A DNA stretch of 64,000 nucleotides from Bacillus sp. ISL-45 (GTDB lineage Bacteria > Bacillota > Bacilli > Bacillales > Cytobacillaceae), in contig NZ_JAGGQQ010000002.1 in assembly GCF_018613195.1 (NCBI RefSeq), positions 30,449 through 94,448 on the forward strand. Direction: 5' to 3'. How positions within the stretch are numbered: the first letter of the stretch is position 1; each line of letters opens with the position of its first letter. This document shows positions 2,807 to 52,321 of the stretch, in pieces. The notes beneath the pieces are model-generated. The model was not told the origin of the DNA. It made no database searches and was given only the letters and a program-made list of their open reading frames with translations. The translations under genes were made by a program, and so were the position numbers.

Positions 2807-2822
2807 TTACCGTAGGAGGTAT
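2807..2822. promoter_or_regulatory. Putative CsoR/CstR-type operator before sulfur module 1
   Basis: TTACC-GTAGGA-GGTAT is a 16-bp pseudo-palindrome whose right half runs into TATAAA, a possible -10. The same (A/T)ACC-N6-GGTAT layout occurs before the second sulfur module and ccdA. CsoR-family repressors bind short palindromes with TACC/GGTA-like arms, and CstR of that family controls TusA-rhodanese and persulfide dioxygenase genes in Staphylococcus. The assignment is inference. Confidence 0.5.
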
Positions 2823-2897
2823 ATAAACTAGAGGGGATTTTTGCAGTATGGATTCCACGAATTCATAAATACTAAAGTGTAGGAAGGGGGATTAACT

Positions 2898-3476
2898 ATG
2901 TCAATTTCTGCGGATAAAGTACTTGATGCAAAAGGTCTTGCATGCCCGATGCCGATTGTCAAGACGAAGAAGACCATGAATGAGCTGGAGCCAGGCCAGG
3001 TTATTGAAGTACAGGCCACGGATAAAGGTTCAACAACCGATTTAAAAGCCTGGGCTGAAAGTACTGGCAATCAATACCTCGGTACGATCACTGAAGGGGA
3101 TGTGCTCAAACATTATCTCCGCAAAGCCAGTGAAGATGAACTGAACAATGAATCGCCACACCCGCATACAGCAACACTTGAAGAGGTGCTAGCAAAGCTG
3201 GAAGGCAATGAAAAAATAACCGTTCTTGATGTAAGGGAATCAGCTGAATACGCTTTTGGGCATATTCCGAATGCAAAATCAATCCCACTTGGAGAGCTGG
3301 AGCAGCGTTTCAATGAATTGGATGCTGAAGAGGATGTCTATATCATTTGCCGCTCTGGATCAAGAAGTGATATGGCGGCAAAGAAGCTTGTCGAAAAAGG
3401 ATTCAAGAAACCAATTAATGTTGTTTCCGGGATGAAGGACTGGACAGGCCCTACCGAAACATCAGTTGAAAAATAA
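2898..3476 (+). CDS. TusA-rhodanese fusion sulfurtransferase (CstA-like), module 1
   Basis: 192 residues in two domains. Residues 5-78 are a TusA/SirA-type sulfur carrier with the CPMP motif (Cys16), and residues 92-188 are a rhodanese domain with an active-site loop of CRSGSRS (Cys151). Such fusions pass sulfane sulfur between persulfide carriers; the staphylococcal CstA is the closest characterised design. It is the first gene of a tight three-gene unit (14 bp and 26 bp gaps) with a DsrE-like carrier and a persulfide dioxygenase-like enzyme, which suggests cytoplasmic detoxification or assimilation of hydrogen sulfide-derived persulfides. GGAAGGGGG precedes the ATG. A paralogue with the same domain order lies at 19420. 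Confidence 0.9.
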   Translation: MSISADKVLDAKGLACPMPIVKTKKTMNELEPGQVIEVQATDKGSTTDLKAWAESTGNQYLGTITEGDVLKHYLRKASEDELNNESPHPHTATLEEVLAKLEGNEKITVLDVRESAEYAFGHIPNAKSIPLGELEQRFNELDAEEDVYIICRSGSRSDMAAKKLVEKGFKKPINVVSGMKDWTGPTETSVEK

Positions 3477-3490
3477 GGAGGAATCAACAA

Positions 3491-3880
3491 ATGAAAGTAG
3501 CCATCATCGCCTCTAACGGCGGAATGTTCGACGCATATAAAGTATTCAATATAGCGACTGCGGCAGCAGCAACAGACGCAGAAGTAGGAATTTTCTTCAC
3601 ATTTGAAGGGCTTAACCTGATCCATAAGGAAGCGCACAAGCAGCTGCCTATGCCAGCAGGAACAGAGCACTTCCAGGAAGGCTTCGCAAGAGAAAACGTT
3701 CCTCCTGTAGAACAGCTAGTTGAAATGGCAGCAGAAATGGGCGTCAAGATGATTGCCTGCCAGATGACAATGGACGTTATGTCTCTTGAAAAAGACCAGT
3801 TTGTTGAAGGGATCGATGTGGGCGGAGCAGCTTCATTCCTTCACTTCGCAAGCGATGCAAACATTACATTGACATTCTAA
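3491..3880 (+). CDS. DsrE/DsrF-like sulfur carrier, module 1
   Basis: 129 residues, Rossmann-like DsrE fold: [10 protein letters not shown] at the start, FFTFEGLNL in the middle and [12 protein letters not shown] near the end. Cys90 in that last motif is the conserved persulfide-carrying position of DsrE2-type proteins. It lies 14 bp after the TusA-rhodanese stop with its own AGGAGG. It probably exchanges sulfane sulfur with the TusA domain next door. It is shorter than the paralogue at 18913, which has an insertion of about 30 residues after the second strand. Confidence 0.9.
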
Positions 3881-3906
3881 AATCAAAGCATGACAGGAGG
3901 AATGAA

Positions 3907-5028
3907 ATGGTACAGACAATCACAGCAAAAGAATTAGCTCGAAAAGTCATTAACCATGAAGACCTGTTTATCCTTGATACAAGAAATACAGATGACTTCG
4001 ATGATTGGAAAATCGAAGGCCGCAATGTAAAAGTCCATAATACGCCGTATTTTGACCTGCTTGAAGGTGTGGATCCCGTAAAGGATGTTTTGCCGAAGGA
4101 TCAGGAAATTTACGTCGTATGTGCAAAAGGTGGTTCGTCAGAATTCGTTGCCGAACAAATCGAAGAGGCCGGCTATACGAATGTTTACTCTATCGAGGGC
4201 GGCATGAAGGCCTGGAGTGAACATTTAGAGCCTATCAAGATTGGCGATCTGAAAAATGGCGGATCGCTTTATCAATTCGTCCGTATCGGCAAAGGCTGTC
4301 TTTCCTATCTTGTTGAATCAAATGGCGAGGCTGCGATCATCGATACAAACCGGATGATTGAACAGTATGAGGAATTCATGTCAGGCAAGGACTTCAAGCT
4401 TGTAGCCCTGCTTGATACCCACCTCCATGCTGACCATATTTCCGGCGGTAAGAAGCTTGCTGATAAAGTGGGAGCTAAATATTACCTTCCGCCTAAAGAT
4501 GCAGAAGAAGTGACATTCCAATATGAACCTCTTCAGGATGGCGATGAAATCAAGGTTGGAAACACCGCGATCCACGCTTTGTACTCTCCTGGTCATACGA
4601 TCGGAAGTACTTCGTTCATCATTGATGACCAATATCTGCTGACAGGTGACATTCTGTTCATCGACTCCATCGGACGCCCTGACTTAGCCGGTCTGGCTCA
4701 GGACTGGGTAGGCGACTTGAGGAATACTTTATACCAGCGCTATAAAGAACTTGCGGATGAATTACTTGTCCTGCCCGCCCACTATATGGGAATCAATGAG
4801 ATGAATGATGACGGCAGTATTTCCGAAAAACTTGGCGTTCTTTACGCCGAAAATCACGGATTGCAAATCGACAGTGAAGATACGTTCAGAAAGACCGTAA
4901 CCGAAAACCTACCGCCACAGCCTAACTCCTACCAGGAAATAAGGCAGATGAATATGGGGAAAATCAACCCGGACATCGAAGAACAGCGGGAAATGGAAAT
5001 CGGTCCAAACCGTTGTGCTGTTAGATAA
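3907..5028 (+). CDS. Rhodanese-MBL fold enzyme, persulfide dioxygenase-like, module 1
   Basis: 373 residues. Residues 5-108 form a rhodanese domain with an active-site loop VCAKGGSSE (Cys72). Residues 118-330 form a metallo-beta-lactamase fold of the ETHE1/persulfide dioxygenase type with HLHADH (His172, His174, Asp176, His177), SPGHT (His230), TGDILF (Asp248) and LPAHYMG (His292). In this family one Fe(II) held by two His and one Asp oxidises a glutathione- or low-thiol persulfide to sulfite. The C-terminus keeps a conserved GPNRCAVR with Cys370, also present in the 20044 paralogue; its role is unknown. The domain order is reversed compared with CstB. Third gene of the module; a terminator follows. 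Confidence 0.88.
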
Positions 5029-5070
5029 CTCGATAACCGGAAGCGCTAGAGTGGGAAATGTTAAGAAAGA

Positions 5071-5100
5071 GGGTACCTTATGTGTAAGGTACCCCTTTTA
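5071..5100 (+). terminator. Terminator of sulfur module 1
   Basis: A perfect 10-bp stem (gggtacctta / taaggtaccc) with a tgtg loop is followed by cttttaat. Confidence 0.75.
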
Positions 5101-5180
5101 ATAAGGCTTTTTCCATAAGCATCGTGCTGATCAGGACGTTTATGGAAAAAGCTTTAACGAACAATGGAGGAGAGGATACT

Positions 5181-6611
5181 ATGACTAAGTTGACGATTAT
5201 CCAGCAAAACGACACACATGGGAGCCTGGAACTCCATCATGAACTATTCTGGAAGGAGAACCAGCCTGAACTCCGTAAAATAGGTGGTTTCCCGAGGATC
5301 GCAAAATATGTCAAGAATCTTAAATCGCAAAATGAAAATGTACTATTCCTTGATGGTGGGGATCTTTTTCATGGCACGCTTCCTTTGGTCGCTTCAAAAG
5401 GACAAGCCATTTTGCCAGCATTGAAGAAAATGGGGCTGGATGGATGGGTCCCCGGCAACTGGGATTTTGCCTATGGTAAGGAGCAATTTTCTTCACTGGC
5501 AAAAGACTTGCCTTTCCCGACAATTGCATGCAACGTAAAAGAGGAGAATGACAATCAGTCATTTTTAAAGCCATATATCATTAAAAATCTTAAGGGCATC
5601 AAGGTAGGTGTCATTGGACTTACCTATCCTTATGTTGACGAAACCATGCCTGCAAGCTTTTCAAAAGGCCTGGTATTTTCAAAAGGAGTGGAAGAGACCC
5701 GTCAATGTGTTGATGAATTAAAAGGCAGCGTGGATCTGATCGTGCTGCTGAGTCATATGGGTCTCCCGCTTGATGTTGAACTGGCTGCGCTCATTGATGG
5801 AATTGATATCATCTTATCGGGCCACAGCCATGACAGGGTCGAAAAGCCAATCACTGTAAACGGATCTCTAGTCGTCCAGGCAGGATCCAGTGCTTCCTTC
5901 ATTGGAAAGCTGGTAATCAACCTGGAAGGCGGAAAGCTGGAAAGCTATCAGTACGAGCTGGCAGCCATAGATGAAAGCTTCCCTGCAGATGAGGAGATGG
6001 AGGAAATCATTGCGGATATCCTTAAGCCATACAGCAGGGAGCGGAATCATGTAGTGGGCAGGACAGAGTCGATTTTACACAGGATGACCTTGAATGAAGC
6101 CCCGATGGATCAATTGATTACCGATGCCTATCTAAATGCGTACGATAGTGATTTGGCGTTTTCACATGGCTGGAGGTACGGTACCCCGCTCCCTGCAGGG
6201 GATGTGACCAAGTATGACCTGCATACGATCATTCCCACGAACCCTGAGATGTTTACGCTGGAGATGACAGGAGAGCATCTGATGAATACTCTTGAGAAGA
6301 ATCTTGAAATGGTTTTTTCGAGAGACCCATTCAAGCAAAAAGGCGGATATATACTCAGGTCCTCAGGATTATTTATGTCCTTCAAGCCTTATAATCCGGA
6401 AGGAAACAGAATTCAGAAGCTTCTTGTTGGCGGGCAGGGGATTGACTTGAGAAAGAACTACAAAATTGCGGGGGCAGGCAAGCAGCTTTTTAAAGGCGCT
6501 GAAGCTGATAAAACCTATCATGGTGTCCATGCAGTTGATATTATTAAGCAATTTTTAAAAGAAAAAGGTACATTCAAAGCAGATGCAGAACCAAAAATCC
6601 TGAGCACCTAA
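5181..6611 (+). CDS. Cytoplasmic 5'-nucleotidase/UDP-sugar hydrolase family metallophosphatase (YunD-like)
   Basis: 476 residues. The start at 5181 has GGAGGAGAGG upstream. The N-terminal metallophosphoesterase domain shows the metal ligands in order: QQNDTHG (residues 8-14), DGGDLFHG (58-65), PGNWDF, LSHMG and GHSHDRVEKP. The C-terminal half (about 290-476) is the 5'-nucleotidase substrate-binding domain, with FSHGWRYG and the GGYILRSSG region. No signal peptide is present, unlike the exported YfkN type, and the length matches YunD of Bacillus subtilis (about 460). Probable role is nucleotide or UDP-sugar hydrolysis inside the cell. It stands alone; a tandem repeat array follows. Confidence 0.85.
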   Translation: MTKLTIIQQNDTHGSLELHHELFWKENQPELRKIGGFPRIAKYVKNLKSQNENVLFLDGGDLFHGTLPLVASKGQAILPALKKMGLDGWVPGNWDFAYGKEQFSSLAKDLPFPTIACNVKEENDNQSFLKPYIIKNLKGIKVGVIGLTYPYVDETMPASFSKGLVFSKGVEETRQCVDELKGSVDLIVLLSHMGLPLDVELAALIDGIDIILSGHSHDRVEKPITVNGSLVVQAGSSASFIGKLVINLEGGKLESYQYELAAIDESFPADEEMEEIIADILKPYSRERNHVVGRTESILHRMTLNEAPMDQLITDAYLNAYDSDLAFSHGWRYGTPLPAGDVTKYDLHTIIPTNPEMFTLEMTGEHLMNTLEKNLEMVFSRDPFKQKGGYILRSSGLFMSFKPYNPEGNRIQKLLVGGQGIDLRKNYKIAGAGKQLFKGAEADKTYHGVHAVDIIKQFLKEKGTFKADAEPKILST

Positions 6612-6625
6612 AATCCCTTGGTTTA

Positions 6626-6766
6626 TGGACATTTCGGAGGCGGAGCAGAGCCAAAATGTCTAAGAAAGAGGGTTTAATGGACATTTCGGAGGCGGAGCAG
6701 AGCCAAAATGTCTAAGAAAGAGGGTTTAATGGACATTTCGACCACGAAACAGAGCCAAAATGTCAA
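6626..6766. repeat. 52-bp tandem repeat array, about 2.7 units
   Basis: Units begin at 6626, 6678 and 6730. The first two are identical over 52 bp and the third diverges in the middle. Each unit carries inverted arms GACATTT and AAATGTC about 19 bp apart, so each can fold into a hairpin. It fills the space between the convergent nucleotidase and resA-like genes. Three other arrays in the window have the same period with unrelated sequence. Confidence 0.9.
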
Positions 6767-6772
6767 ATAAAC

Positions 6773-10555: not shown

Positions 10556-11269
10556 TTAAACTCCGAATAAGCTGTAAGCAGACAGCCAGGCACTGATTTT
10601 CTGCATTTGCCCGGAAAGGACAAGGAAGCCCATACCTACCATAATCATACCATTCACAAGTGCAAGCTTAGAAAGATATTTGTTGATTTTCTTGATTGCT
10701 TTTAATGAATAAGAAATGACAAAAGATATGATTAGAAAAGGAACTGCCATTCCAAGAGAATAAGAAGTCAGCAGATACATTCCCTGATATAAAGTATCGG
10801 AAGAACTCGCCAAAAGCAGGATGGATGAGAGTGCGAGGCCGACACAAGGTGACCATCCGCTAGCAAACGCCATACCAAGGAACACGGAACCAAATGCACC
10901 TTTCGATTTGGTTTCGGATTGAACCTTCTTTTCCATCATCAGAAACTTAATGTTCAGCAAGCCGGCCATCTGCAAACCGAAAATGATGATCAGCAATCCT
11001 GCGATTTGCATGACGATTGTCCGGTAATTTGCGAAAACCTGTCCAAGGAAAGATGCCGAGGCACCCATGACGATAAAAATCAAACTAAAACCGACGATAA
11101 AACCAAATGAACGGGTAAATAGTGTTGTGCGATCGACTGCAACTTTCGATCCCTCAATCTTTCCGCCAGTCAAATGTGTTATGTAAGCAGGGAGAAGAGG
11201 GAAAACACAAGGTGAGAAGAATGATAAAATTCCAGCAGTAAAAGCAAAAAATAAACCGATTTCTGTCAT
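10556..11269 (-). CDS. ccdA: CcdA-type cytochrome c biogenesis / thiol electron transfer protein
   Basis: 237 residues from the ATG at 11269 (AAGGAG 11 bp upstream); a GTG at 11281 overlaps the binding site. Six transmembrane helices with the two conserved cysteines in FFSPCVFPLLPAY (Cys21) and SGWSPCVGLALS (Cys142). CcdA carries electrons from cytoplasmic thioredoxin across the membrane to extracytoplasmic thioredoxin-like proteins such as ResA. It heads the minus-strand group that ends with the resA-like gene, and a possible CsoR/CstR-type operator lies 74-89 bp upstream. Confidence 0.92.
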   Translation of the reverse strand: MTEIGLFFAFTAGILSFFSPCVFPLLPAYITHLTGGKIEGSKVAVDRTTLFTRSFGFIVGFSLIFIVMGASASFLGQVFANYRTIVMQIAGLLIIIFGLQMAGLLNIKFLMMEKKVQSETKSKGAFGSVFLGMAFASGWSPCVGLALSSILLLASSSDTLYQGMYLLTSYSLGMAVPFLIISFVISYSLKAIKKINKYLSKLALVNGMIMVGMGFLVLSGQMQKISAWLSAYSLFGV

Positions 11270-11342
11270 AAAAATAGTCACTCCTTTTCTTTTATCTATA
11301 TTGTGATGTATTTGTTAAGGATTAATTAAGAATACTAAAAAT

Positions 11343-11358
11343 ATACCCCTGTTGGTAT
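11343..11358. promoter_or_regulatory. Putative CsoR/CstR-type operator upstream of ccdA
   Basis: ATACC-CCTGTT-GGTAT, the same 16-bp layout as the sites before both sulfur modules. A plus-strand TATAAT at 11374-11379 lies just to the right, and a minus-strand TATATT overlaps the left arm. Confidence 0.45.
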
Positions 11359-11469
11359 AGTGTGTTTTTATTGTATAATGACTGAAGATAAGTTTCAAAT
11401 TTATTCACTTATTTTTGCCGGCACGGTTTTTCGTGCTTTTGATTGCTAGTATACTGCTTCAAGGAACAT

Positions 11470-11830
11470 AAGAAAAGCGCAAGCGCCTTGGCAGCCCCGA
11501 CAAGCGTTGCCCGCCTATAACGCCACTTCGTGTGGCTGGCGGGTCTGGCACTTCCTGTGCTTCAGAGGGCCGACCGGTGAAGTCGCTCTATGACTTCATA
11601 GGGCGGACCGAAAACGAAATGCGTAGGCGACTGCCCAACTCCGACAAGCGTTGGAGGGCCTGACAGTGAAGTCGTTCTTTGACTTCATTGGCAGGACCGA
11701 AACGACTCGAGGAGTTAGGAGCCGCAGCTAGACAGACGTCTCGAGCTGCTCAAAGCTGACGCTTCTCGCAAGATACTCGAGGAAGAATCTCGGAGATGAA
11801 AACTGGCTAGGCGCTGGAGCTGGACAATTC
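11470..11830. repeat. Long GC-rich Bacillaceae extragenic repeat
   Basis: Begins with agaaaagcgcaagcgccttgg and ends with ggcgctggagctggacaattctc. Inside, the segment with gaagtcgctctatgacttc and its neighbours occurs twice (about 11578 and 11670), so the element contains internal duplications and several hairpins. The same ends with most of the middle deleted occur at 50928-50998. GC content is far above the AT-rich flanks. No reading frame is convincing. Confidence 0.75.
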
Positions 11831-11861
11831 TCTAAGTTGAAATGATATACATTCTGATACT

Positions 11862-11917: not shown

Positions 11918-11933
11918 AAACCCTGTGTGGTAT
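11918..11933. promoter_or_regulatory. Degenerate (A/T)ACC-N6-GGTAT palindrome
   Basis: AAACC-CTGTGT-GGTAT, close to the 18809 site, immediately followed by TATAAT (11931-11936) on the plus strand. It lies between the stop and terminator of the 11942 gene, so its target is unclear. Confidence 0.3.
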
Positions 11934-13151: not shown

Positions 13152-14744
13152 TTATTCTTTATCTTTATCTTTGTTTTGTTCAGCCAATTCCATTTCGAGT
13201 TCCGTTTGGATTGAAAGGGACTTATGCTCGTCAGAAGCCAGGTAATCGATGATTTGCTGTCTCTCTTCATCGGTCATTTTCGCTCCGTTTCCTTTCATAC
13301 GGTCAACAACTGATGTCCACGCCTCAGCACCTTTACTGTTGTTCCTCATAATACGGCCGATATCATGGCAAGTCAGGCAAGTGCCCAGGAATGCTTCTTC
13401 ATTAATATTCCTTGCATCCGGGAATACGAGAGTGGAAGCTTTTTTGATCTTGTTTGCTTCTTCCTCATTGCCTTTTTGGTTTGCAAGGAGCTGCTCTTTG
13501 GGAACATTAGTCTTAATGGCGATTCCGTTCGGGTTCAAACCTACAGGAATGGTCTGCCTGAAATCTTTTTTCTTTGTCAGATCAATCTTCGTAAGGGTTT
13601 TGTCACCCCAGTTCGATCCGAACATCATGCTGCCATCCGGGCTCCAGTAGAGCCAATGGATATTTTGTACGCCCCAGATTTTCCTCACGATCTTATAGTT
13701 ATCTTCCGGATCCATTACAGTCAGATACCCTGCACCATTTTGGGAAGTATACCAGTATCCATCTGGACCAAGATAAGGGATATTTGTTCCCGGACCTGTT
13801 TTAATGGTTTTAATGAACTTTAGTTTATCTGCATCAATGATGGAAATGGATCCATCATTACGGTTCCCTGTAACCAAATCATAAGTATCGCCCATGAAGC
13901 TTACGTTGACCGGCTTAGGGATATCTCCGATTTTCTTTAAAAGCTTCTCGGATTCAGCGTCATAGATTGCCACTTCATTGTCGGCAGTATTGGATACTGC
14001 CACAAGTTTTCCATCGTTTGACATATCCAGACCGGAACCTGTTCCCTTTCCGTAGTCTGTCTCCGTTCTTTCGAGGTATCTCATGTCACCTGTTTCGATG
14101 TCGATGACTGTAATGAAAGATTCAGCCTGCAAGCTGACAAACAGCTTTTTGCCGTCAGGAGTGACATTCAGATCCCTTGGCTTTTTACCTACATCCTTGA
14201 AGACTTTTACAAGTTCAGCTTTTTCAGCATCGATCATTCCAACCGCTCCAACACCATTCAAGGAGGTAAAAGCGTATTTGCCATCTCTCGAGAATGTCAT
14301 ATGCTGTGGTGCAGGATCACTGTCAAAGCCGGGGAAGTCGATGTCATGTGCCTCTAGTGTCTCCATGTTGATGGCTAATACGCTTGTTCCGTAACGCTGT
14401 GTCGCAAAAGCCCATGTCTGGTCTTTGTTCAGGTGGACATGGTGAGGTGTACCAGAGCTTTGAAAGTATTTTACTGGATTGCCAGTTTTAATATCAGCGA
14501 TGGCAATACCGTTACTAACTTCGTTTGCTGACAAGATCCAGCCTTCGCCGTCCCAGTCCTTATTGGTATCCGCGTTTCCGTTCGGCTGGTCTTTCCACCA
14601 GTTCGAAGAATAGTCCTCATGGATTGGAGGAAGTTCTTTGCTGTTTTTATCATCAAGTGATGTATCTTTCACTGCTGCTTCAGAGCAGGCAGTAAGAGAA
14701 ATTGAAAGTAGTGCGAATGCTGAAAGTTTCAAGATTTTATTCAT
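13152..14744 (-). CDS. Lipoprotein with cytochrome d1-like beta-propeller and C-terminal cytochrome c domain
   Basis: 530 residues. Lipoprotein signal with lipobox SLTAC (Cys20). Residues about 65-420 are repeated beta-propeller blades with YVTN-like units (TPDGKKLFVSL, SNDGKLVAVSN, SPDGSMMFGSN), the fold of cytochrome cd1 and related proteins. A c-type heme site CLTCH (Cys456-Cys459-His460) follows in a compact C-terminal domain with KMTDEERQQIIDYLAS. The domain order is opposite to NirS, where the cytochrome c domain comes first, and I cannot identify the NirS active-site histidines. It ends the cbb3 oxidase gene group and probably works as an extracytoplasmic electron carrier or oxidoreductase facing that oxidase. 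Substrate unknown. Confidence 0.82.
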   Translation of the reverse strand: MNKILKLSAFALLSISLTACSEAAVKDTSLDDKNSKELPPIHEDYSSNWWKDQPNGNADTNKDWDGEGWILSANEVSNGIAIADIKTGNPVKYFQSSGTPHHVHLNKDQTWAFATQRYGTSVLAINMETLEAHDIDFPGFDSDPAPQHMTFSRDGKYAFTSLNGVGAVGMIDAEKAELVKVFKDVGKKPRDLNVTPDGKKLFVSLQAESFITVIDIETGDMRYLERTETDYGKGTGSGLDMSNDGKLVAVSNTADNEVAIYDAESEKLLKKIGDIPKPVNVSFMGDTYDLVTGNRNDGSISIIDADKLKFIKTIKTGPGTNIPYLGPDGYWYTSQNGAGYLTVMDPEDNYKIVRKIWGVQNIHWLYWSPDGSMMFGSNWGDKTLTKIDLTKKKDFRQTIPVGLNPNGIAIKTNVPKEQLLANQKGNEEEANKIKKASTLVFPDARNINEEAFLGTCLTCHDIGRIMRNNSKGAEAWTSVVDRMKGNGAKMTDEERQQIIDYLASDEHKSLSIQTELEMELAEQNKDKDKE

Positions 14745-18808: not shown

Positions 18809-18824
18809 ATACCCTGTGAGGTAT
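18809..18824. promoter_or_regulatory. Putative CsoR/CstR-type operator before sulfur module 2
   Basis: ATACC-CTGTGA-GGTAT directly after the -10 of a good promoter. The position at the transcription start and the match to the 2807 site before the paralogous module support shared repression by a sulfur-sensing CsoR-family protein. Confidence 0.55.
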
Positions 18825-18912: not shown

Positions 18913-19392
18913 ATGGGAGAACAGAAAAAAACCACAATTATTTTATTCAGTGGGGATTATGATAAAGTCATGGCTGCTTACATCATTGCTAATGGTGCCG
19001 CTGCCTATGATCATGAAGTGACGATTTTCCACACATTTTGGGGATTGAACGCTCTAAGGAAAGATGAGCCAATCCAGGCTGACAAAGGCTTCATCGAAAA
19101 GATGTTTGCCAAGATGATGCCAAGAGGCGCGAACAAATTAGGAATGTCAAAAATGAACTATGCAGGCTTCGGACCTAAAATGATCAAGGATGTAATGAAA
19201 AAGCACAATGTAATGCCGCTTCCAGACTTGATTGACATGGCAAAAGAGCAGGATGTCAAGCTTGTTGCCTGCCAAATGACAGTAGACTTATTTGGCCTTA
19301 AGCAAGAAGAAATCATGGAAGGCGTTGAGTTTGCTGGTGTAGCAGCTTACCTTGCTGATGCGGAAGACGGAAACGTCAACCTGTTCATCTAA
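18913..19392 (+). CDS. DsrE2-type sulfur carrier, module 2
   Basis: 159 residues. DsrE-like fold with TTIILFSGDYDKVMAAYI at the start, IFHTFWGLNAL, and the conserved KLVACQMTVDLFG with Cys120 as the likely persulfide carrier. Between strands there is an insertion of about 30 residues (KMMPRGANKLGMSKMNYAG), typical of the longer DsrE2 proteins and absent from the 3491 paralogue. It is the first gene of a five-gene unit with TusA-rhodanese, rhodanese-MBL, TusA and a TauE exporter. Confidence 0.9.
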   Translation: MGEQKKTTIILFSGDYDKVMAAYIIANGAAAYDHEVTIFHTFWGLNALRKDEPIQADKGFIEKMFAKMMPRGANKLGMSKMNYAGFGPKMIKDVMKKHNVMPLPDLIDMAKEQDVKLVACQMTVDLFGLKQEEIMEGVEFAGVAAYLADAEDGNVNLFI

Positions 19393-19419: not shown

Positions 19420-19995
19420 ATGGAAACTGTTAAAACAAATGCTACAGTCGACGCAAAAGGGCTTGCATGCCCAATGCCGATTGTCAGAACGAAGAAAGCA
19501 ATCAACAATTTAATACCTGGCGAGGTTTTAGAGGTGCTCGCAACGGATAAAGGTTCTAGGGCGGATATCCAGGCTTGGTCTAAAAGCTCTGGCAATCAGT
19601 ATCTTGGAACCATCGAAGAAGGCGATGTTCTTAAGCACTATATCCGCAAGGGCGGTTCAGGTGAAGAACAAGAAGAAACAAAATATCCAAACATTGTTTC
19701 AAATGATGATGTTGTCAAGAAGCTTGAAGCAAATGAGGATGTTGTTGTCCTTGATGTAAGAGAGCCGGCTGAATATGCATTTGGACACATTCCAAATGCA
19801 GTATCTATTCCATTTGGTGAACTTGAAAGCAGACTCGATGAACTTGATAAGTCCAAAACAATCCTTGTTGTTTGCCGCACAGGCAACAGAAGTGACATGG
19901 CATCCCAGACACTTTCAGGCAAAGGCTTTGAGAAGGTTTGGAATGTAGTGCCAGGCATGTCTGAATGGAATGGCCCAACTGAAACAAAAGTATAA
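19420..19995 (+). CDS. TusA-rhodanese fusion sulfurtransferase (CstA-like), module 2
   Basis: 191 residues, same plan as the 2898 protein: TusA domain with CPMP (Cys17) at about 6-78 and a rhodanese domain with loop CRTGNRS (Cys152) at about 95-190. The two fusions share motifs such as YAFGHIPNA and NGPTET/TGPTET, so they are clear paralogues. It lies 27 bp after the DsrE2 gene with GGAGG upstream. Likely accepts sulfur from cysteine or low-thiol persulfides and hands it to the neighbouring dioxygenase. Confidence 0.9.
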   Translation: METVKTNATVDAKGLACPMPIVRTKKAINNLIPGEVLEVLATDKGSRADIQAWSKSSGNQYLGTIEEGDVLKHYIRKGGSGEEQEETKYPNIVSNDDVVKKLEANEDVVVLDVREPAEYAFGHIPNAVSIPFGELESRLDELDKSKTILVVCRTGNRSDMASQTLSGKGFEKVWNVVPGMSEWNGPTETKV

Positions 19996-20043
19996 TAATT
20001 TATTTTTTTGTAAAAAACCATACCCAGGGAGGTAAGATAGTTT

Positions 20044-21165
20044 ATGAAAGCAATGACGTCTAAAGAAATAACTAAAAAAGTATTCAATAAAGAACCATTT
20101 TTCATTCTTGATGTCCGTAACGAGAGCGACTTCAACGACTGGAAAATTGAAGGCGAAAACTTCGAATACCTTAACATCCCATACTTCGATCTTCTTGACG
20201 GAGTAGAAGAAATCCTTGATAAAGTACCTACTGATAAAGAAGTTCTAGTTGTATGTGCAAAAGAAGGTTCTTCAGTAATGGTCGCTGAAATGCTTGATGA
20301 AGCTGGCCGTGAAGTATCTTATCTTCAAGGCGGTATGAAAGCATGGAGTGAACACCTTGAGCCAGTAAAGGTTGGAGATCTTAAAGATGGCGGAGCAATG
20401 TACCAGTTCGTCCGCATCGGAAAAGGCTGCCTTTCATATGCAGTAGTTTCTAACGGTGAAGCAGCATTGATCGACGCAACAAGAATGACAGATGTTTACC
20501 TGGACTTCGCAAAAGAGTTTGGCGTTGAAATCAAGCACGTTTTCGATACACACCTGCACGCCGACCATATTTCCGGCGGAAGAAAAATTGCGGAAGCAAC
20601 AGGTGCAGCATACTGGCTGCCTCCAAAAGACGCTGATGAAGTCACATTCAATTACCAGCCTCTTGAAGATGGCAACAATGTAAAAATCGGTGAAACAAAC
20701 ATCGACATCAACGCACTTTATACACCGGGCCACACAATCGGTTCTACATCTTTTGTTGTAGATGAAAAATATCTTCTATCCGGGGATATACTATTCATTG
20801 ATTCAATTGGACGTCCAGACCTTGCTGGTAAAGCAGAAGACTGGGTAGCAGACTTGAGAAACTCACTATACACTCGCTACAAGCAGCTTTCTGATGAGCT
20901 TGTCGTTCTTCCTGCACACTTCATGATTATTGAAGAGTTGAATGAAGATGGCAGCGTATCTGAAAAATTAGGTACACTTTTCGCCAAGAACCATGGCTTG
21001 AACATCGAAGACGAGGCTGAGTTCAGAAGACTTGTGACTGAGAACCTGCCGCCACAGCCAAATGCATACCAGGAAATCCGTGAAACAAACATGGGCAAAA
21101 TCAACCCAGACGATGAGAAGCAAAGAGAAATGGAAATCGGACCAAACCGCTGTGCGGTAAGATAA
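20044..21165 (+). CDS. Rhodanese-MBL fold enzyme, persulfide dioxygenase-like, module 2
   Basis: 373 residues, a full-length paralogue of the 3907 enzyme. N-terminal rhodanese domain with VCAKEGSSV, then an MBL fold with [34 protein letters not shown] and LPAHFM, and the same GPNRCAVR C-terminus. It differs from module 1 in the rhodanese loop (KEGSS versus KGGSS). Codon choice is noticeably more optimal (gca, gaa, aaa, ctt) than in module 1, suggesting higher expression. Product sulfite could leave through the TauE-like exporter encoded two genes downstream. Confidence 0.9.
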
Positions 21166-42046: not shown

Positions 42047-42205
42047 TTTGAAGGAGATTTCTTAACAGAGTAAAATACAGATATAGGTATATATTGGAAT
42101 TAAGGCAGCCCCCTGCACTGATGTTTTTTGACTTTTAAAATATATGGTGTGGGGTATAAGAGAATATAGTCTTCATAAACCTATTAAAATGAAGGAGGAG
42201 TTCAT

Positions 42206-43591
42206 ATGTATTTCAAGTCATTTTTTGATGACCAGCTTGCACATATGTCTTACTTGATCGGCTGCCAGAGAACGGGCGAAGCGATTGTCATCGACCCGGC
42301 AAGGAATATCCAGCCTTATCTGGACATCGCCAAAAAAGAGGGCCTCAAAATCTCAGCTGCAACAGAAACCCATATTCATGCAGATTATCTGTCAGGAGCA
42401 AGGGAGCTTGCCCATCACCATGGCGCGAAGCTGTATGTATCCGATGAAGGGGATAAGGACTGGAAGTATCAATATGTCGACCAGTATGAGCATGAATTGC
42501 TGACAGAAGGCTCGACGTTCAATATTGGAAATATTTATTTTGAAGTCATCCACACGCCGGGCCATACACCGGAAAGCATCTCATTCCTGTTGACGGATAA
42601 GGGCGGCGGCGCCAATGAGCCGATGGGAATTTTCACGGGAGACTTCCTGTTCGTGGGCGATGTAGGCCGACCGGATCTTCTTGAAAAGGCGGCAGGCATC
42701 AAGGATACATCCGAAGCGGGTGCACGCCAGATGTTCGAATCGCTCCGAAAAGTGGAAGAGCTGTCTGACTTCCTGCAGGTATGGCCAGCACACGGAGCAG
42801 GAAGCGCATGCGGAAAATCCCTTGGAGCTGTGCCAATGTCCACTTTAGGCTATGAAAAAAAATTCAACTGGGCTTTCCAAATCAAAGAAGAGGATAAGTT
42901 TGTTGAGGAGCTGCTTGCCGGACAGCCGGAGCCTCCGAAGTACTTTGCCCAGATGAAAAAGCTGAATAAAGTAGGCCCTGAACTGCTCAGACATGAGGAA
43001 ACGCCTAAAGTGTCATTATCTGACGCAGGGGATGCAGTGGTTGTCGACACCCGTCCGGCAGATGAGTTCGCCGAGGGACATGCTGAAGGAACGATCAATA
43101 TCCCCTATAATAACTCCTTCACGAACTGGGCAGGTTGGCTGTTAAACTATGACCAGGACATCGTATTGATTGGTGATCCGGAAAAACTGACTGATGCAGG
43201 AAAATCCCTGCAGTCAATCGGACTTGACCAGGTCACAGGGTATATTGACCCGAAAGAGCTCAGCGGCAGCCTGGAAGGTTACAAGACCATCACCGCCAGC
43301 GAGGCAAAAGAAATGATGGAAGACGATAACTACTTTGTCATCGACGTCCGCAATCAGAGCGAGTGGGACAGCGGCCATATCCCCGGTGCCCATCACATGA
43401 TGCTCGGAAACCTGACCGACAAGCTTGACGAGGTGCCAAACGACAAGAAAATCATCGCCCACTGCCAGTCAGGCGCACGTTCCGCGATCGGAACAAGCCT
43501 GCTCTTGAAAAACGGCTACAAGGATGTAGTCAACCTCGAAGGCGGCTACTCCGCCTGGGAAGAAGAAGGACTCCCTGTTAAAAAGGATTAA
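42206..43591 (+). CDS. cstB: CstB-like persulfide dioxygenase-sulfurtransferase (MBL plus two rhodanese domains)
   Basis: 461 residues. N-terminal MBL dioxygenase domain (1-240) with THIHADY (His56, His58, Asp60), TPGHTPES (His120), TGDFLFVGD (Asp146) and WPAHGAGSACGKSLG (His196, Cys202). Mononuclear persulfide dioxygenases use His-His-Asp, so Tyr61 in place of the last His of HxHxDH is tolerable. A first rhodanese-like domain (about 268-350) lacks the active cysteine (IGDPEK in its place). The C-terminal rhodanese (about 362-458) has loop CQSGARS (Cys420). The arrangement and length match staphylococcal CstB, which turns low-thiol persulfides into thiosulfate. It has AGGAGG upstream and a weak half-matching TACC/GGTA site at 42142-42157. 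Confidence 0.88.
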   Translation: MYFKSFFDDQLAHMSYLIGCQRTGEAIVIDPARNIQPYLDIAKKEGLKISAATETHIHADYLSGARELAHHHGAKLYVSDEGDKDWKYQYVDQYEHELLTEGSTFNIGNIYFEVIHTPGHTPESISFLLTDKGGGANEPMGIFTGDFLFVGDVGRPDLLEKAAGIKDTSEAGARQMFESLRKVEELSDFLQVWPAHGAGSACGKSLGAVPMSTLGYEKKFNWAFQIKEEDKFVEELLAGQPEPPKYFAQMKKLNKVGPELLRHEETPKVSLSDAGDAVVVDTRPADEFAEGHAEGTINIPYNNSFTNWAGWLLNYDQDIVLIGDPEKLTDAGKSLQSIGLDQVTGYIDPKELSGSLEGYKTITASEAKEMMEDDNYFVIDVRNQSEWDSGHIPGAHHMMLGNLTDKLDEVPNDKKIIAHCQSGARSAIGTSLLLKNGYKDVVNLEGGYSAWEEEGLPVKKD

Positions 43592-46431: not shown

Positions 46432-46442
46432 GATGAAAAAAG

Positions 46443-47520: not shown

Positions 47521-47535
47521 CAGAATGCCCGAGGA

Positions 47536-48591: not shown

Positions 48592-48859
48592 TATGAATGC
48601 CTCCAATTTGATTAAGCATTAATTGTCTAAGATATAGTCTAGCAAAAAAATCCTGGGTGACAAAATGTTACGAACAACAGGTGAATGGGTAAAATAGTAC
48701 AGGAGATCTTCAGTTTGTAAAATGAATGTTAGATAACCTGACCAAAATCTGGACTTTAAGCTTTTTAAGGGATATGCTCTTTTATAATGAGATTCTAGCA
48801 AAGTTTTCTCAATAGACGAAAGAGCCTGATATCAGTTTAAAGTGTTTAGGAGGTTTATT

Positions 48860-49687
48860 ATGAGCTTGCAAAAACAGATAATTGACGCATTGAATGTGAA
48901 GCCGCAAATCGATCCCCAGCAGGAAATCAGGAAGAGAATCGATTTTTTAAAGGAATATTTACTTGTCTCAAGGGCAAAAGGGTTCTTGCTTGGAATCAGC
49001 GGCGGCCAGGATTCCACCCTCGCTGGAAGGCTGGCGCAGATGGCAGCGGAGGAATTGCGGTCAGAAGGCAAGGAGGCCAAATTCGTAGCAGTCAGACTTC
49101 CATATGCTGTGCAAAAAGACGAGGAAGATGCACAGAAAGCATTGGACTTCATCAAGGCTGACCAGACGATCACCTTCAATATCCAGCCTGCTGTCGATAC
49201 GTTCAATACACAGTTCGAGGAAGCGATTGGCGATAATATGACGGATTTTAATAAAGGAAACGCAAAGGCAAGGATGAGAATGATCACACAGTATGCCATC
49301 GCAGGACAGGAAGGCTTGCTGGTGATCGGGACAGACCATGCTGCCGAGGCTGTGACCGGATTCTTTACAAAATACGGGGACGGCGGTGCCGATTTGCTGC
49401 CTCTATCCGGACTGAACAAGCGTCAGGGCAGGGAACTGCTGAAGGCATTGAACGCAGAACCGAGACTGTACCTGAAAGAGCCTACTGCCGACCTTCTTGA
49501 CAACAAGCCGCTTCAGTCCGATGAAACCGAGCTTGGAGTCAGCTATGAAGCAATCGATGACTATCTGGAAGGAAAGCAGATTGACGAAGCGGACGCTGGC
49601 AAAATTGAAGGCAGATACCTTGCTTCCGAGCATAAACGGCATATGCCTGCATCCATGTTTGATTCTTGGTGGAAGAGATATGCATAA
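48860..49687 (+). CDS. nadE: Ammonia-dependent NAD+ synthetase
   Basis: 275 residues from the ATG at 48860 after AGGAGG. ATP-pyrophosphatase loop [14 protein letters not shown] (SGGQDST, 47-53), then [13 protein letters not shown]-like segment ([13 protein letters not shown]), [26 protein letters not shown], and the C-terminal [18 protein letters not shown]. It makes NAD+ from deamido-NAD+ and ammonia; there is no glutaminase domain. The length and motifs are standard for Bacillus NadE. Confidence 0.96.
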
Positions 49688-49730
49688 AAAAGCCTGGCTG
49701 AGATCTTCGATCAATCAGCCAGGCTTTTCA
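49685..49730. terminator. Bidirectional terminator after nadE
   Basis: Stem aaaaaagcctggctga / tcagccaggctttt with a long inner hairpin gatcttcgatc. Confidence 0.9.
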
Positions 49731-49731
49731 T

Positions 49732-50076
49732 TTATTCAGTTTGCGCCACTGCGAAATGCGGCGTATCTTCTTTTTCCGTCACTTTGTCGATTTTATCGGT
49801 GAACATTTGGAAGACTCGCTTTTTCTCTTCCAATTCCTTGATATATTCCTTCAAATCATTGAATTTCTCCTCAAATGGCTGATGATACAGTTCACGGATT
49901 TTCCTGTTCAAGTCTGGATTCACTGTCGACTGGACGACTTGCTTTGTGATGTTGAATTTATATGTATACACTTTTAACTCGTTTTTAACTTCTTCATACT
50001 CCGAATCAATCTCTTGAAGAATCTCTTCAATTTCTGTTTTCCATTCATCTAGCGACTTCTTAACATGCTGTTCCAT
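49732..50076 (-). CDS. Coiled-coil protein of unknown function
   Basis: 114 residues, almost all charged helix with heptad-like spacing (WKTEIEEILQEIDSEYEEVKN and FEEKFNDLKEYIKELEEKKR, each quoted in part). AGGAGG lies upstream of the ATG. No cysteine, signal peptide or membrane helix. It is probably cytoplasmic; I do not recognise the family. Convergent with nadE. Confidence 0.75.
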   Translation of the reverse strand: MEQHVKKSLDEWKTEIEEILQEIDSEYEEVKNELKVYTYKFNITKQVVQSTVNPDLNRKIRELYHQPFEEKFNDLKEYIKELEEKKRVFQMFTDKIDKVTEKEDTPHFAVAQTE

Positions 50077-50356
50077 AAGGATCCTCCTGCCATTCGCCTG
50101 TAATAAAGCTTCTTCCCTTTATTCTAGCAAGCGAATTTTACATAGAGATTGCTGGGATATTACATTGTTAAAACAATCCTAGTCCGAATTTGTACAGTGC
50201 TTCCCAAAAGCTGTTTCTATCAATCTGCAGGTATTAAACTATCTCATAAAAGATTTCTCTATAAATGGTTCTAGGAAAAAAGACTCATCCTTGTAAGAAA
50301 ATGGCGAAAATTGTTGAAATAACGGTACTATAGTTTTATATTTTAATTAGAACTGA

Positions 50357-50435
50357 AAAAGGCAAACTCATCGAAAGGTGAGGACGCAAAGCCACGAGTC
50401 TAAGGCATCACTGCTATGATCGTCGGGCTGCCAAA
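50357..50435 (+). ncRNA. c-di-GMP-I riboswitch (GEMM)
   Basis: aaaaggcaaactcatc, GAAA tetraloop, ggtgaggacgcaaagccacg and the closing cgtcgggctgcc match the GEMM-I aptamer, including the GGCAAAC and GACGCAAAGCC core. A terminator follows at 50494-50527, giving a transcription-control platform. The next gene in the same direction is the orphan 50699 protein, so that protein is presumably under cyclic di-GMP control. Confidence 0.93.
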
Positions 50436-50493
50436 AAAGAACGGATGAGAACACCAGGTACAGGTGGATGGTTTTAAAGACTGTTTGCCACAT

Positions 50494-50527
50494 TAAAATC
50501 CGCCGTCCTTTTGGGGGATTTTTTATT
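50494..50527 (+). terminator. Expression-platform terminator of the c-di-GMP riboswitch
   Basis: Stem aaaatcc / ggatttt with a G/C-rich inner part, followed by a T tract. Confidence 0.7.
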
Positions 50528-50698
50528 TGGAATGTCTCTTTCTGCACCATATTGCAAAAAGAAACGAATTTCACGTTTGTATATTGCGATATAGGATAAA
50601 TAATACCTAAGATACTTGACAGGACAAAATAAAATGATCCTTTTGGCAGATTTGGTTTTAGCCAATGTTCAATTTTTTTATGAAAGGTGGAGGAAACG

Positions 50699-50923
50699 TT
50701 GACGGTTTTATTTGGGACGGTAGAGTACTTTGAACGGGAGATAGAGTTTCATTTATCTGAAGTTGAAAAAAGAGAGAGGTTCCGGGAAGAAATCAATCAA
50801 ATTCAATTGAAGCTTGAAGAAGAGCTGCTTAATGACTTTATCTGCGACGAAAAGCTAAGGATGGAATGCTTGCAGAATCTATCGAATGCCTGCAGTAAGT
50901 TAACTGAAGATTATGTAGTTTGA
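50699..50923 (+). CDS. Small acidic helical protein under a c-di-GMP riboswitch
   Basis: 74 residues from a TTG at 50699, 5 bp after AAGGTGGAGG; the GTG at 50687 overlaps that site. The sequence is mostly charged amphipathic helix (FEREIEFHLSEVEKRERF, LKLEEELLNDFICDEKLR) with two cysteines (about 51 and 59 in CDEKLRMECLQNL). No signal peptide, membrane helix or known motif. The upstream riboswitch ties it to the motile/sessile switch. Family unknown. Confidence 0.7.
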   Translation: MTVLFGTVEYFEREIEFHLSEVEKRERFREEINQIQLKLEEELLNDFICDEKLRMECLQNLSNACSKLTEDYVV

Positions 50924-50927
50924 CAAG

Positions 50928-50998
50928 AAAAGCGGAAGCGCCTTGGTCAGCCCCGACAAGCGTCTTGAGGGGCTAGGCGGTGCAGCTGGACAATTCTC
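50928..50998. repeat. Short copy of the GC-rich Bacillaceae extragenic repeat
   Basis: agaaaagcggaagcgccttgg ... ggggctaggcggtgcagctggacaattctc, quoted in part. The two ends match the ends of the 11470-11830 element, with about 290 bp of the interior missing. Confidence 0.8.
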
Positions 50999-51023
50999 AA
51001 GTTATATCTTTCTTATTTCATAC

Positions 51024-51056
51024 GAAAAGCCTGTGGACCGATCCACAGGCTTTTTC
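51024..51056. terminator. Strong terminator after the 50699 gene
   Basis: Perfect stem aaaagcctgtgga / tccacaggctttt, ccga loop. Confidence 0.9.
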
Positions 51057-51132
51057 TATTGCTCTATTTAACTAGGCAGAGGGATAATACCTGGTTGGTA
51101 TGTATTCTGCTTTGTAAAAGAAGAATGTCCTT

Positions 51133-51222
51133 TTGAGTATTTTTGATGAGGCTGGAACGGAAATCAACAACCACTATGGACAAGAGCATTATTTCAAAAA
51201 AGTGTTTGAACATCTCGTTTAA
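51133..51222 (+). pseudogene. Possible C-terminal gene remnant
   Basis: A 29-codon frame (from TTG 51133, open back to about 51121) encodes IFDEAGTEINNHYGQEHYFKK and ends in FEHLV at TAA 51220. The composition looks like genuine protein, yet there is no room for an N-terminus because a stop lies at 51113-51115. An ATACC-N5-GGTAT motif stands just upstream at 51087-51101. Probably a leftover of a deleted gene; a real small protein is less likely. Confidence 0.3.
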
Positions 51223-51262
51223 AGGATATGTTTATCAATAGGACAGCAAAAGGGGAATCGAC

Positions 51263-51595
51263 ATGGAGAAAAAGGAATATAACAAACTCGTAAGAGACCT
51301 GTTTCCTGATTTGATGAAGGAAAAGGGAAAGAAAGTAGAATTTGAAATTTTGGAAGCCAGTCAATATAGTGAAAAACTTATGGAGAAGTTCAATGAGGAA
51401 GTTGAGAAATTCCGTAATGCTGGAACAGACAGGCTGCTGAGTGAAATGGTTGATTTGCTTGAGGTGGTCTATGCGATTGCCGAGCACAGGGGAATCACTG
51501 AATCGGAAGTAGAGTTTATGCGCCAGCTGAAGAAGAATCGCAGCGGCGGCTTCAGGAAAAAAATCATGCTTAAAACAATTGAGGAAGAATCCTGA
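51263..51595 (+). CDS. MazG-like nucleotide pyrophosphohydrolase (phosphoribosyl-ATP pyrophosphohydrolase-like)
   Basis: 110 residues. All-alpha NTP-PPase fold with the family start YNKLVRDLFPDLM and the metal-binding acidic pairs in FNEEVEKF and EMVDLLEVVYAIAE. Proteins of this size with NKLVRD are house-cleaning nucleotide pyrophosphatases of unproven substrate. AGGGGAAT precedes the ATG. Confidence 0.85.
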   Translation: MEKKEYNKLVRDLFPDLMKEKGKKVEFEILEASQYSEKLMEKFNEEVEKFRNAGTDRLLSEMVDLLEVVYAIAEHRGITESEVEFMRQLKKNRSGGFRKKIMLKTIEEES

Positions 51596-51596
51596 T

Positions 51597-51633
51597 AAAA
51601 AAGCCCTCTGCCTTATCGGCGGAGGGCTTTTGC
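51597..51633. terminator. Bidirectional terminator between the NTP-PPase-like gene and doxX paralogue 3
   Basis: Stem aaaaaagccctctgcc / ggcggagggctttt with a ttatc loop. Confidence 0.88.
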
Positions 51634-51640
51634 TATATCG

Positions 51641-52156
51641 TTAAGCAGATTTATGTGCAGCTTCTGGTGTTTGTTTGAAAACAGTTTTGCGGATGAAAGG
51701 AACCACCCAGCGGTCCAAGCCGTATTTACCAGCGTTGTAGCCAGCGAACAGGATGATGAAGCCGAAGAAGATGTCTGTTGGGTTGTGAGACACTGTTCCG
51801 GCAAGGAAGAAGCTGAAGTTCATCACAAGGCCGAAGAACATGGCTGCAGTTGTCAGTGTTCCTAGAATCAAGCCAAGACCAACCAGGAATTCTCCCAGCG
51901 GGACAATAAAGTTGAAAAGTTCGATATTCGGGAGTGCAAAACTTTCAAGGAAGTTTACATACCAACCATATACTGCGTTTCCGTCTGGACCTTTTACTGG
52001 ATTGGCAACTGCATTTTTTAAATATCCAGTTGCGTCGAATCCTTCACCAGTTAATTTTCCCCATCCAGCAGTCATCCAATTGTAACCCAGCCAAACACGA
52101 ATCACAGTCAACAGGCCAGCAGCAATATTGTTTTCTCTTAACCATTTAGCGAACAT
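51641..52156 (-). CDS. DoxX-family membrane protein, paralogue 3
   Basis: 171 residues, identical to paralogue 2 (40110) for residues 1-161, with a different tail (QTPEAAHKSA). Four to five helices with the same signatures (WMTAGWGKLTGEG, SHNPTDIFFG). The leader aaatcgcttcccttcaaaaat is conserved in both copies. Further upstream, at 52306-52321, lies one of the CsoR/CstR-like palindromes. Confidence 0.9.
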   Translation of the reverse strand: MFAKWLRENNIAAGLLTVIRVWLGYNWMTAGWGKLTGEGFDATGYLKNAVANPVKGPDGNAVYGWYVNFLESFALPNIELFNFIVPLGEFLVGLGLILGTLTTAAMFFGLVMNFSFFLAGTVSHNPTDIFFGFIILFAGYNAGKYGLDRWVVPFIRKTVFKQTPEAAHKSA

Positions 52157-52305
52157 CTAAATCGCTTCCCTTCAAAAATTAATAATTATTACACTTATAA
52201 GATATCAAAGCAATTTATGGAAATCTGTGAAAAAAGTGTGAAGACACATATCAGCCATAATGTTTTGAACAAATTTTGTCAAATAAATTCCTTTAATGCA
52301 ACATA

Positions 52306-52321
52306 ATACCTACACAGGTAT
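52306..52321. promoter_or_regulatory. Putative CsoR/CstR-type operator between doxX paralogue 3 and dinB
   Basis: ATACC-TACACA-GGTAT, the most symmetric of the five sites. It is 150 bp upstream of doxX paralogue 3 and 90 bp upstream of the DinB gene, so it could serve either. Confidence 0.4.

What the first reader, a model, noticed from the sequence alone, without database searches (positions are those of the whole stretch)
2807..52321. A predicted sulfur/thiol regulon defined by five 16-bp (A/T)ACC-N6-GGTAT palindromes
Sites at 2807-2822, 11343-11358, 11918-11933, 18809-18824 and 52306-52321 share the arms and a fixed 6-bp centre. Two are directly before the two persulfide modules and one is upstream of ccdA. 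The 18809 site abuts the -10 of a TTGACA-17-TAATAT promoter. CsoR-family repressors, including the persulfide sensor CstR, bind palindromes of this kind. The core TACC-N6-GGTA has eight fixed bases, so about one is expected by chance in 64 kb at even base composition; four exact ones in intergenic DNA is more than expected. No CsoR-type gene is encoded in the window, so the regulator must lie elsewhere. A weaker form (42142-42157) precedes the CstB-like gene.
Basis: partly seen in the sequence, partly recalled or inferred. Interest (0 to 1): 0.75.

Follow-up and report, generated by a model that had tools for sequence, protein, structure and literature searches.

The report
Persulfide-repressor operators in a Mesobacillus genome
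A bacillus genome carries about a dozen copies of one short mirror-image DNA sign in front of its sulfur-handling genes and of a likely sulfur-sensing repressor, so one known type of sensor probably switches many scattered genes together.

Summary
The palindromes are real. TACC-N6-GGTA occurs 6 times in the window (shuffles 0.20) and 36 times in the 4.6 Mb genome. Of 13 stringent ATACC-N6-GGTAT sites, 12 are judged intergenic. In six congeners the arms of 2808, 11344, 18810 and 52307 are mostly kept, while the centres of 2808, 11344 and 52307 drift. Upstream of 80 named TusA-rhodanese loci, spacer 6 gives 68 sites in 54 loci; each other spacer from 0 to 12 gives at most 1. The genome encodes five CsoR-family proteins, three copper-type and two CstR-type. 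One CstR gene lies between two such sites in 7 of 7 congeneric genomes. The CstR interpretation is well supported; binding and sensing are untested. Corrections: 11919 reads better as an extended -10 promoter, 11965 is not conserved, 42142 lacks the left arm, and a conserved site at 20021 was missed. The predicted regulon is dispersed: rhodanese-MBL enzymes, CoA-disulfide reductase-rhodanese, glutaredoxin, DsrE, an MFS transporter, CcdA, DinB/DoxX and a genus-restricted secreted protein. It is a known kind of regulator with a wide predicted regulon.

The parts
2808..2821 (.). Operator-like palindrome TACCGTAGGAGGTA before the first persulfide module
   Evidence: exact in 5 of 6 congeners with a variable centre, one mismatch in the sixth; 76 bp before the TusA-Rhd start
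2898..3476 (+). TusA-rhodanese fusion
   Evidence: Pfam PF01206 and PF00581
3491..3880 (+). DsrE-family sulfur carrier
   Evidence: PF13686 / PF02635
3907..5028 (+). Rhodanese-metallo-beta-lactamase protein, persulfide-dioxygenase-like
   Evidence: PF00581 + PF00753; activity inferred from domains
11344..11357 (.). Operator-like palindrome TACCCCTGTTGGTA upstream of ccdA
   Evidence: exact in 5 of 6 congeners; lies just downstream of a minus-strand promoter-like TTGAAA-17-TACAAT at 11398-11370; a plus-strand match, TTGGTA-16-TATAAT at 11352-11379, overlaps it too
10556..11281 (-). CcdA/DsbD-type transmembrane thiol protein
   Evidence: PF02683
18780..18808 (+). Promoter-like TTGACA-17-TAATAT
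   Evidence: TTGACA is conserved in the alignment
18810..18823 (.). Operator-like palindrome TACCCTGTGAGGTA directly after the -10
   Evidence: exact in 6 of 6 congeners
18913..19392 (+). DsrE2-type sulfur carrier
   Evidence: PF13686 E=2e-67
19420..19995 (+). TusA-rhodanese fusion, second module
   Evidence: PF01206 + PF00581
20021..20034 (.).
   Evidence: exact in 6 of 6 congeners; the right arm alone could be kept as GGAGG, the left TACC arm is not explained by that
20044..21165 (+). Rhodanese-metallo-beta-lactamase protein, second module
   Evidence: PF00581 + PF00753
21576..22352 (+). TauE/SafE permease
   Evidence: PF01925
42075..42090 (.). One-mismatch site ATACAGATATAGGTAT before the CstB-like gene, tentative
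   Evidence: TACA...GGTA kept in 5 of 6 congeners
42206..43591 (+). MBL plus two rhodanese stretches, CstB-like
   Evidence: PF00753 and two PF00581 stretches
52307..52320 (.). Operator-like palindrome TACCTACACAGGTA between divergent doxX- and dinB-like genes
   Evidence: exact in 3 congeners, one mismatch in a fourth; the other two stretches were not alignable here
51641..52156 (-). DoxX-family membrane protein
   Evidence: PF07681
52411..52863 (+). DinB-superfamily protein, possibly a bacillithiol S-transferase
   Evidence: PF12867; the function is recalled family knowledge, not tested
11919..11933 (+).
42142..42157 (+).

Best explanation
The palindromes are operators of a CstR-type (persulfide-sensing, CsoR-family) repressor. 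In the window they control two sulfur-carrier/persulfide-dioxygenase-like modules, ccdA and the divergent doxX/dinB pair. The most likely regulator is the CstR-type protein at contig C3:179587-179847 (locus L020), whose own gene lies between two copies of the site. Reduced CstR would sit on TACC-N6-GGTA next to the -10/start region and block transcription. Persulfides or polysulfides would link its two cysteines and release it, inducing rhodaneses, MBL-type persulfide dioxygenases, CoA-disulfide reductase-rhodanese, glutaredoxin and a transporter at about eleven separate places. Shown here: the sites, their conservation, the fixed spacing, the intergenic placement, the CstR-type genes and their linkage to the sites. 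Inferred: binding, which paralogue acts, sulfur sensing, and repression.
For: 6 sites in the window against 0.20 in shuffles; 36 in the genome. 12 of 13 stringent sites are judged intergenic, P about 4e-8 if 20% of the genome were intergenic (the 20% is an assumption). Footprints in six congeners with mostly fixed arms and, at 2808, 11344 and 52307, variable centres. 80 named TusA-Rhd loci: spacer 6 gives 68 upstream sites in 54 loci, each other spacer from 0 to 12 gives 0 or 1, and 550 bp of the coding part has 1 site with spacer 6. CstR L020 has C..N..C in place of C..H..C, best PDB match 7mq1/7mq2, named CstR in a review, and is flanked by exact sites in 7 of 7 congeneric genomes. Stringent sites precede orthologous genes in three genomes of the genus (own, G028, G078): CoADR-Rhd, MFS, Rhd-MBL, the CstR operon, DsrE2, CcdA and DinB/DoxX. 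In another genus of the family, 7 of 16 loci examined have sites at DsrE, CoADR, rhodanese, Rhd-MBL or glutaredoxin genes. A copper-type CsoR gene has an N7 palindrome. Literature: the CstR-like YrkD of B. licheniformis represses a sulfur-oxidation cluster and loses DNA binding after sulfur treatment (PMC9918477, passages).
Against: No binding or expression data. In the own genome the loose core (36) is fewer than its reversed control (150); only the stringent form exceeds it (13 against 5). 16 of 36 loose sites lie in long ORFs. 15 of 80 TusA-Rhd loci have no site with 0 or 1 mismatch within 400 bp upstream, and the 11 loci with one-mismatch sites only are near the 8.1 expected from shuffles. 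Across 81 family genomes the stringent total (521) is only modestly above the reversed control (350), exceeding it in 47 genomes, equal in 14 and below in 20. In the other genus 9 of 16 loci showed no relative of the reference regulon proteins. G073 has 34 sites but only a weak CsoR-family match in a 570-contig assembly. The second CstR paralogue (L019) has no exact N6 site upstream, so a division of labour is unresolved. No plus-strand sigma-A-type promoter was recognised at 2808; at 52307 only one weak match, downstream of the site.
Confidence: 0.82

Rival explanations
1. The sites belong to the copper-type CsoR paralogues, and sulfur genes are co-regulated with copper efflux.
For: CsoR and CstR are one family; three copper-type CsoR genes are present.
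Against: No exact N6 site lies in the 3.2 kb loci of the three copper-type genes, while two flank CstR L020; the copper-type gene L018 has an N7 palindrome. The targets are sulfur genes.
Confidence: 0.06
2. The other CstR paralogue (L019, C4:105457) or both paralogues bind the sites.
For: L019 is also CstR-type, with best PDB match 7mq1; proteins matching the CstR query occur in 73 of 81 family genomes. Its promoter carries a one-mismatch N6 match, TACAATACGGGGTA, identical in 7 of 7 congeneric genomes.
Against: No exact site at L019. Its conserved promoter block also reads as a TACGG-N4-CCGTA palindrome, which suggests another specificity (own reading).
Confidence: 0.25
3. Several of the sites are chance matches or parts of ordinary promoters and ribosome-binding sites.
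For: 11919 contains an extended -10, 20021 contains a Shine-Dalgarno-like sequence, 42142 resembles a sigma-B promoter, and 11965 is not conserved.
Against: It does not explain 2808, 11344, 18810 and 52307, whose two arms are kept around mostly drifting centres, nor the strict 6-base spacing in the 80 loci.
Confidence: 0.08

Closest known systems
YrkD (CstR-like) of Bacillus licheniformis
   Same: CstR-like repressor of dsrE/tusA/rhodanese/pdo-type genes with two promoter regions bound and loss of binding after elemental sulfur (PMC9918477, passages)
   Different: There the bound promoters lie in one 11-gene cluster headed by yrkD. Here the sites lie at about eleven separate places, and the likely regulator is in a small rhodanese operon on another contig.
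CstR of Staphylococcus aureus
   Same: Two-cysteine CsoR-family persulfide sensor of the cst operon (PMC5480029 and PMC9774590, passages)
   Different: Reported as likely controlling directly a single operon, cst (PMC5480029, passage). Its operator sequence could not be read here: the paper is not held.
TTHA1953 of Thermus thermophilus
   Same: CsoR-family, CstR-like repressor of sulfur-oxidation genes that lie far from its own gene (PMC10318464, passages)
   Different: Its motif is TACNNTACNNNNGTANNGTA, a different spacing from TACC-N6-GGTA; NaHS did not reduce its binding
Copper CsoR
   Same: Same protein family, related TACC/GGTA half sites
   Different: C..H..C pattern and a 7-base spacer at the one copper-type gene with an exact site

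Membership tests
CstR (persulfide-sensing CsoR family) for protein L020 | CsoR-family domain PF02583 | tested here: met
   75.7 bits, cut-off 22.8
CstR (persulfide-sensing CsoR family) for protein L020 | Two conserved cysteines with the copper-ligand histidine replaced | tested here: met
   EECKS...KNLEQC against DTYCDD...EGHMKSC in the copper-type paralogue; the role of the histidine is recalled, the cysteine pair is in PMC9774590 (passage)
CstR (persulfide-sensing CsoR family) for protein L020 | Closer to solved CstR than to solved copper CsoR | tested here: met
   7mq1 59.0 bits against 4m1p 41.2; the copper-type L016 ranks them the other way, 42.8 and 66.6. L020's margin over 6ahx (54.4) is small.
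CstR (persulfide-sensing CsoR family) for protein L020 | Gene linked to rhodanese genes and operator sites | tested here: met
   Site-Rhd-CstR-site-Rhd-Rhd; both sites exact in 7 of 7 congeneric genomes. The first rhodanese is just under the Pfam cut-off (20.7 against 22.2).
CstR (persulfide-sensing CsoR family) for protein L020 | Curated NCBIfam model for CstR | tested here: inconclusive
   No CstR model appeared in the listing; best match RicR, 51.2 bits, cut-off 175
CstR (persulfide-sensing CsoR family) for protein L020 | Binds operator DNA; released by persulfide or polysulfide | not testable with these tools
   needs EMSA or fluorescence polarisation
Regulon (one regulator, many sites) | Sites enriched, intergenic and conserved upstream of orthologues | tested here: met
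   true of the stringent form, the loose core is mixed
Regulon (one regulator, many sites) | Co-expression on sulfide or polysulfide | not testable with these tools
   no expression data

The most novel reading that the evidence does not exclude
In Mesobacillus and some relatives CstR is a global, dispersed regulator rather than a single-operon one. It joins cytoplasmic persulfide removal to membrane thiol transfer (CcdA), a DinB-type (possibly bacillithiol) transferase, DoxX, an MFS transporter and a genus-restricted secreted protein of unknown function that carries two tandem operators.
Probability: 0.5. Interest if true: 0.6.

Novelty: new member of a known kind. Interest (0 to 1): 0.45.

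Why it matters
It turns a guess from raw sequence into a sharp, testable regulon: a simple sign (TACC-N6-GGTA) that may separate CstR from copper CsoR targets (one N7 example seen) and names new candidate persulfide genes, including proteins of unknown role. The papers seen here describe CstR at one operon (S. aureus) or one cluster (B. licheniformis); a genus with about eleven CstR target places would show how far persulfide signalling reaches in bacilli.

Tried and rejected
Rejected readings. 11965: right arm not conserved. 42142: lacks the left arm. 11919: downgraded to an extended -10 promoter. The loose site C22:30815 is by my own reading inside a thiamine-riboswitch-like stretch; this was not tested with Rfam. 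The first footprint script read minus-strand loci in the wrong orientation and gave 12 of 30; the corrected script gave 19 of 30 exact. The one-mismatch counts are no better than its (single-base) shuffles and are not used as evidence. The family-wide comparison is confounded by kinship: the 8 of 81 genomes without a match to the CstR query have a mean of 1.9 sites, the other 73 a mean of 6.9. It is used only as weak support. All five CsoR-family proteins fall below every NCBIfam cut-off listed. The S. aureus and E. faecalis operator sequences could not be read: one paper is not held, and the word 'operator' is absent from the other.

Counts dropped or limited. The 30 loci are the best matches of a longer list over 59 of 81 genomes. 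The loci are the best 80 of 166 and overlap in species. Of the stringent sites in G028 (12) and G078 (10), one each (G028 4386266, G078 4737996) was not examined, and G078 389368 had no clear target gene. C23:36589 is counted as intergenic although it overlaps an 83-aa ORF that I judge spurious. For 52307, two of the six congeners had no alignable stretch (in G057 it lies beyond the part fetched). Of 50 stringent sites in G073 and G052, the loci of 16 were looked at, 9 without a match to the reference regulon proteins.
Full report
Observation. TACC-N6-GGTA is found six times in the 64 kb window (2808, 11344, 11965, 18810, 20021, 52307) against a mean of 0.20 in 100 dinucleotide shuffles. The looser reader pattern also includes 11919 and others. 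The genome (4,596,485 bases, 27 contigs; the window is C21:30449-94448) has 36 such sites, so 6 of 36 lie in 1.4% of the genome (binomial P 1e-5, with the caution that the window was chosen because of them). The reversed control pattern has 150 in the genome, so the loose core as such is not in excess; the stringent form ATACC-N6-GGTAT has 13 against a control of 5.

Intergenic or coding. I read the ORF context of the exact sites outside the window and of those inside it. Of the 13 stringent sites, twelve are judged intergenic: C3:179178, 179892, 231761, 348290 and 348324; C17:45494; C22:136816; C23:36589 (overlapping an 83-aa ORF that I judge spurious) and 115277; and window 11344, 18810 and 52307. 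One, C12:104390, lies in a 199-aa ORF. Of the other 23 loose sites, 15 lie in ORFs of 140 aa or more, so the loose form mixes real and chance sites.

What the intergenic sites precede. Rhodanese-MBL protein (C3:231761), rhodanese-CstR and further rhodaneses (C3:179178 and 179892), tandem DsrE proteins (C17:45494), CoA-disulfide reductase-rhodanese (C22:136816), glutaredoxin (C23:115277), an MFS transporter (C23:36589), and a 131-aa protein with a signal-peptide-like start and two tandem sites (C3:348290 and 348324). In the window they precede the two modules (TusA-Rhd, DsrE, Rhd-MBL), ccdA and the divergent doxX/dinB pair. That makes about eleven separate places.

Conservation. In six congeners the orthologous regions were fetched and aligned. 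2808 is exact in 5 of 6 with a freely varying centre; 11344 in 5 of 6; 18810 in 6 of 6 with a nearly fixed centre; 20021 in 6 of 6; 52307 in 3 of 4 alignable, the fourth one base off. In two complete congeners (G028, G078) stringent sites again precede CoADR-Rhd, MFS, Rhd-MBL, the CstR operon, DsrE2, CcdA and DinB/DoxX; glutaredoxin has one in G028. In a different genus of the family (G052, G073), 7 of 16 loci examined have sites at DsrE, CoADR, rhodanese, Rhd-MBL or glutaredoxin genes, and 9 show no relative of the reference proteins. In 80 named TusA-Rhd loci from Bacillales, spacer 6 gives 68 sites in 54 loci, and each other spacer from 0 to 12 gives 0 or 1. The names place the window in or next to Mesobacillus.

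The regulator. PF02583 has five hits in the genome, none in the window. Three have the copper pattern C..H..C. Two, L019 and L020, have C..N..C as in CstR. L020 and L019 both match the PDB chain 7mq1/7mq2 best, which a review names as CstR (PMC9774590, passage); the copper-type L016 matches the chain 4m1p, labelled CsoR, best. L020 lies between two exact sites in 7 of 7 congeneric genomes. L019 has a fully conserved promoter block without an exact N6 site. A copper-type gene, L018, has instead an N7 palindrome nearby; the stringent N7 form has 3 sites in the genome against a control of 7. I therefore favour L020 as the regulator of the window sites.

How it likely works. At 18810 the palindrome directly follows the -10 of TTGACA-17-TAATAT, and at 11344 it lies just past the -10 of a minus-strand TTGAAA-17-TACAAT that reads into ccdA (a plus-strand match overlaps it too). 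A repressor there would block start-site melting or escape. Release by persulfide is inferred from CstR and YrkD work (PMC9774590 and PMC9918477, passages). In B. subtilis the related yrkEFHIJ operon is strongly induced by allicin and diallyl tetrasulfane (PMC6943732, passage).

Corrections to the finding. 11919 has AACC on its left, and its conserved right half is an extended -10. 42142 has no TACC arm; its conserved (C/T)TTTAA...GGGTAT resembles a sigma-B promoter (consensus recalled). The one-mismatch 42075 is the better candidate before the CstB-like gene. 20021 should be added, with the caveat that its right arm is also a likely ribosome-binding site.

Limits. There are no binding or expression data. 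Family-wide counts are only modestly above the reversed control (521 against 350; above in 47 genomes, equal in 14, below in 20) and confounded by kinship. G073 (34 sites, weak CsoR match, 570 contigs) is unexplained. In the listings of the literature searches I saw no report of a dispersed CstR regulon in bacilli; the library holds open papers only, and of six papers I read passages, not whole texts.

Noticed in passing
window 2356-2736; L026 4873-5268: A protein family with the signature VGQMGAD...QIGFMADRI, without Pfam or NCBIfam match, found in 7 of 81 family genomes, all of this genus; the L026 copy has a signal-peptide-like start; 5 of 6 loci of that type have two tandem TACC-N6-GGTA sites. 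The window copy, just upstream of site 2808, lacks such a start.
   Followed up: partly
window 11470-11850 and L025 (several places): An interspersed repeat lies between ccdA and the LysR gene; pieces of it occur at several places around the second CstR gene at 73-92% identity.
   Followed up: partly
window 13152-14744: Beta-propeller protein with a C-terminal cytochrome-c-like part; weak match to lactonase-type nitrous-oxide reductase, far below its cut-off (81.7 against 700 bits), next to cbb3-type oxidase genes.
   Followed up: no
window 42130-42160: A block (C/T)TTTAA...ATATGGTG...GGGTATA is nearly identical in seven congeneric genomes and looks like a sigma-B promoter of the CstB-like gene (consensus recalled).
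   Followed up: partly
L019 upstream of 1489: The promoter of the second CstR-type gene is identical in seven congeneric genomes over TATAATAGATACAATACGGGGTACCGTA, suggesting a different operator.
   Followed up: partly
G073 (L235-L249, odd numbers): A fragmented genome of another genus has 34 stringent sites, the most of 81, some of them at TusA-Rhd, rhodanese and Rhd-MBL genes, but only a weak CsoR-family match.
   Followed up: partly
window 5124-6611: SoxB-like protein of the 5'-nucleotidase family after the first module; 331 bits to the SoxB model, below its cut-off of 550.
   Followed up: no
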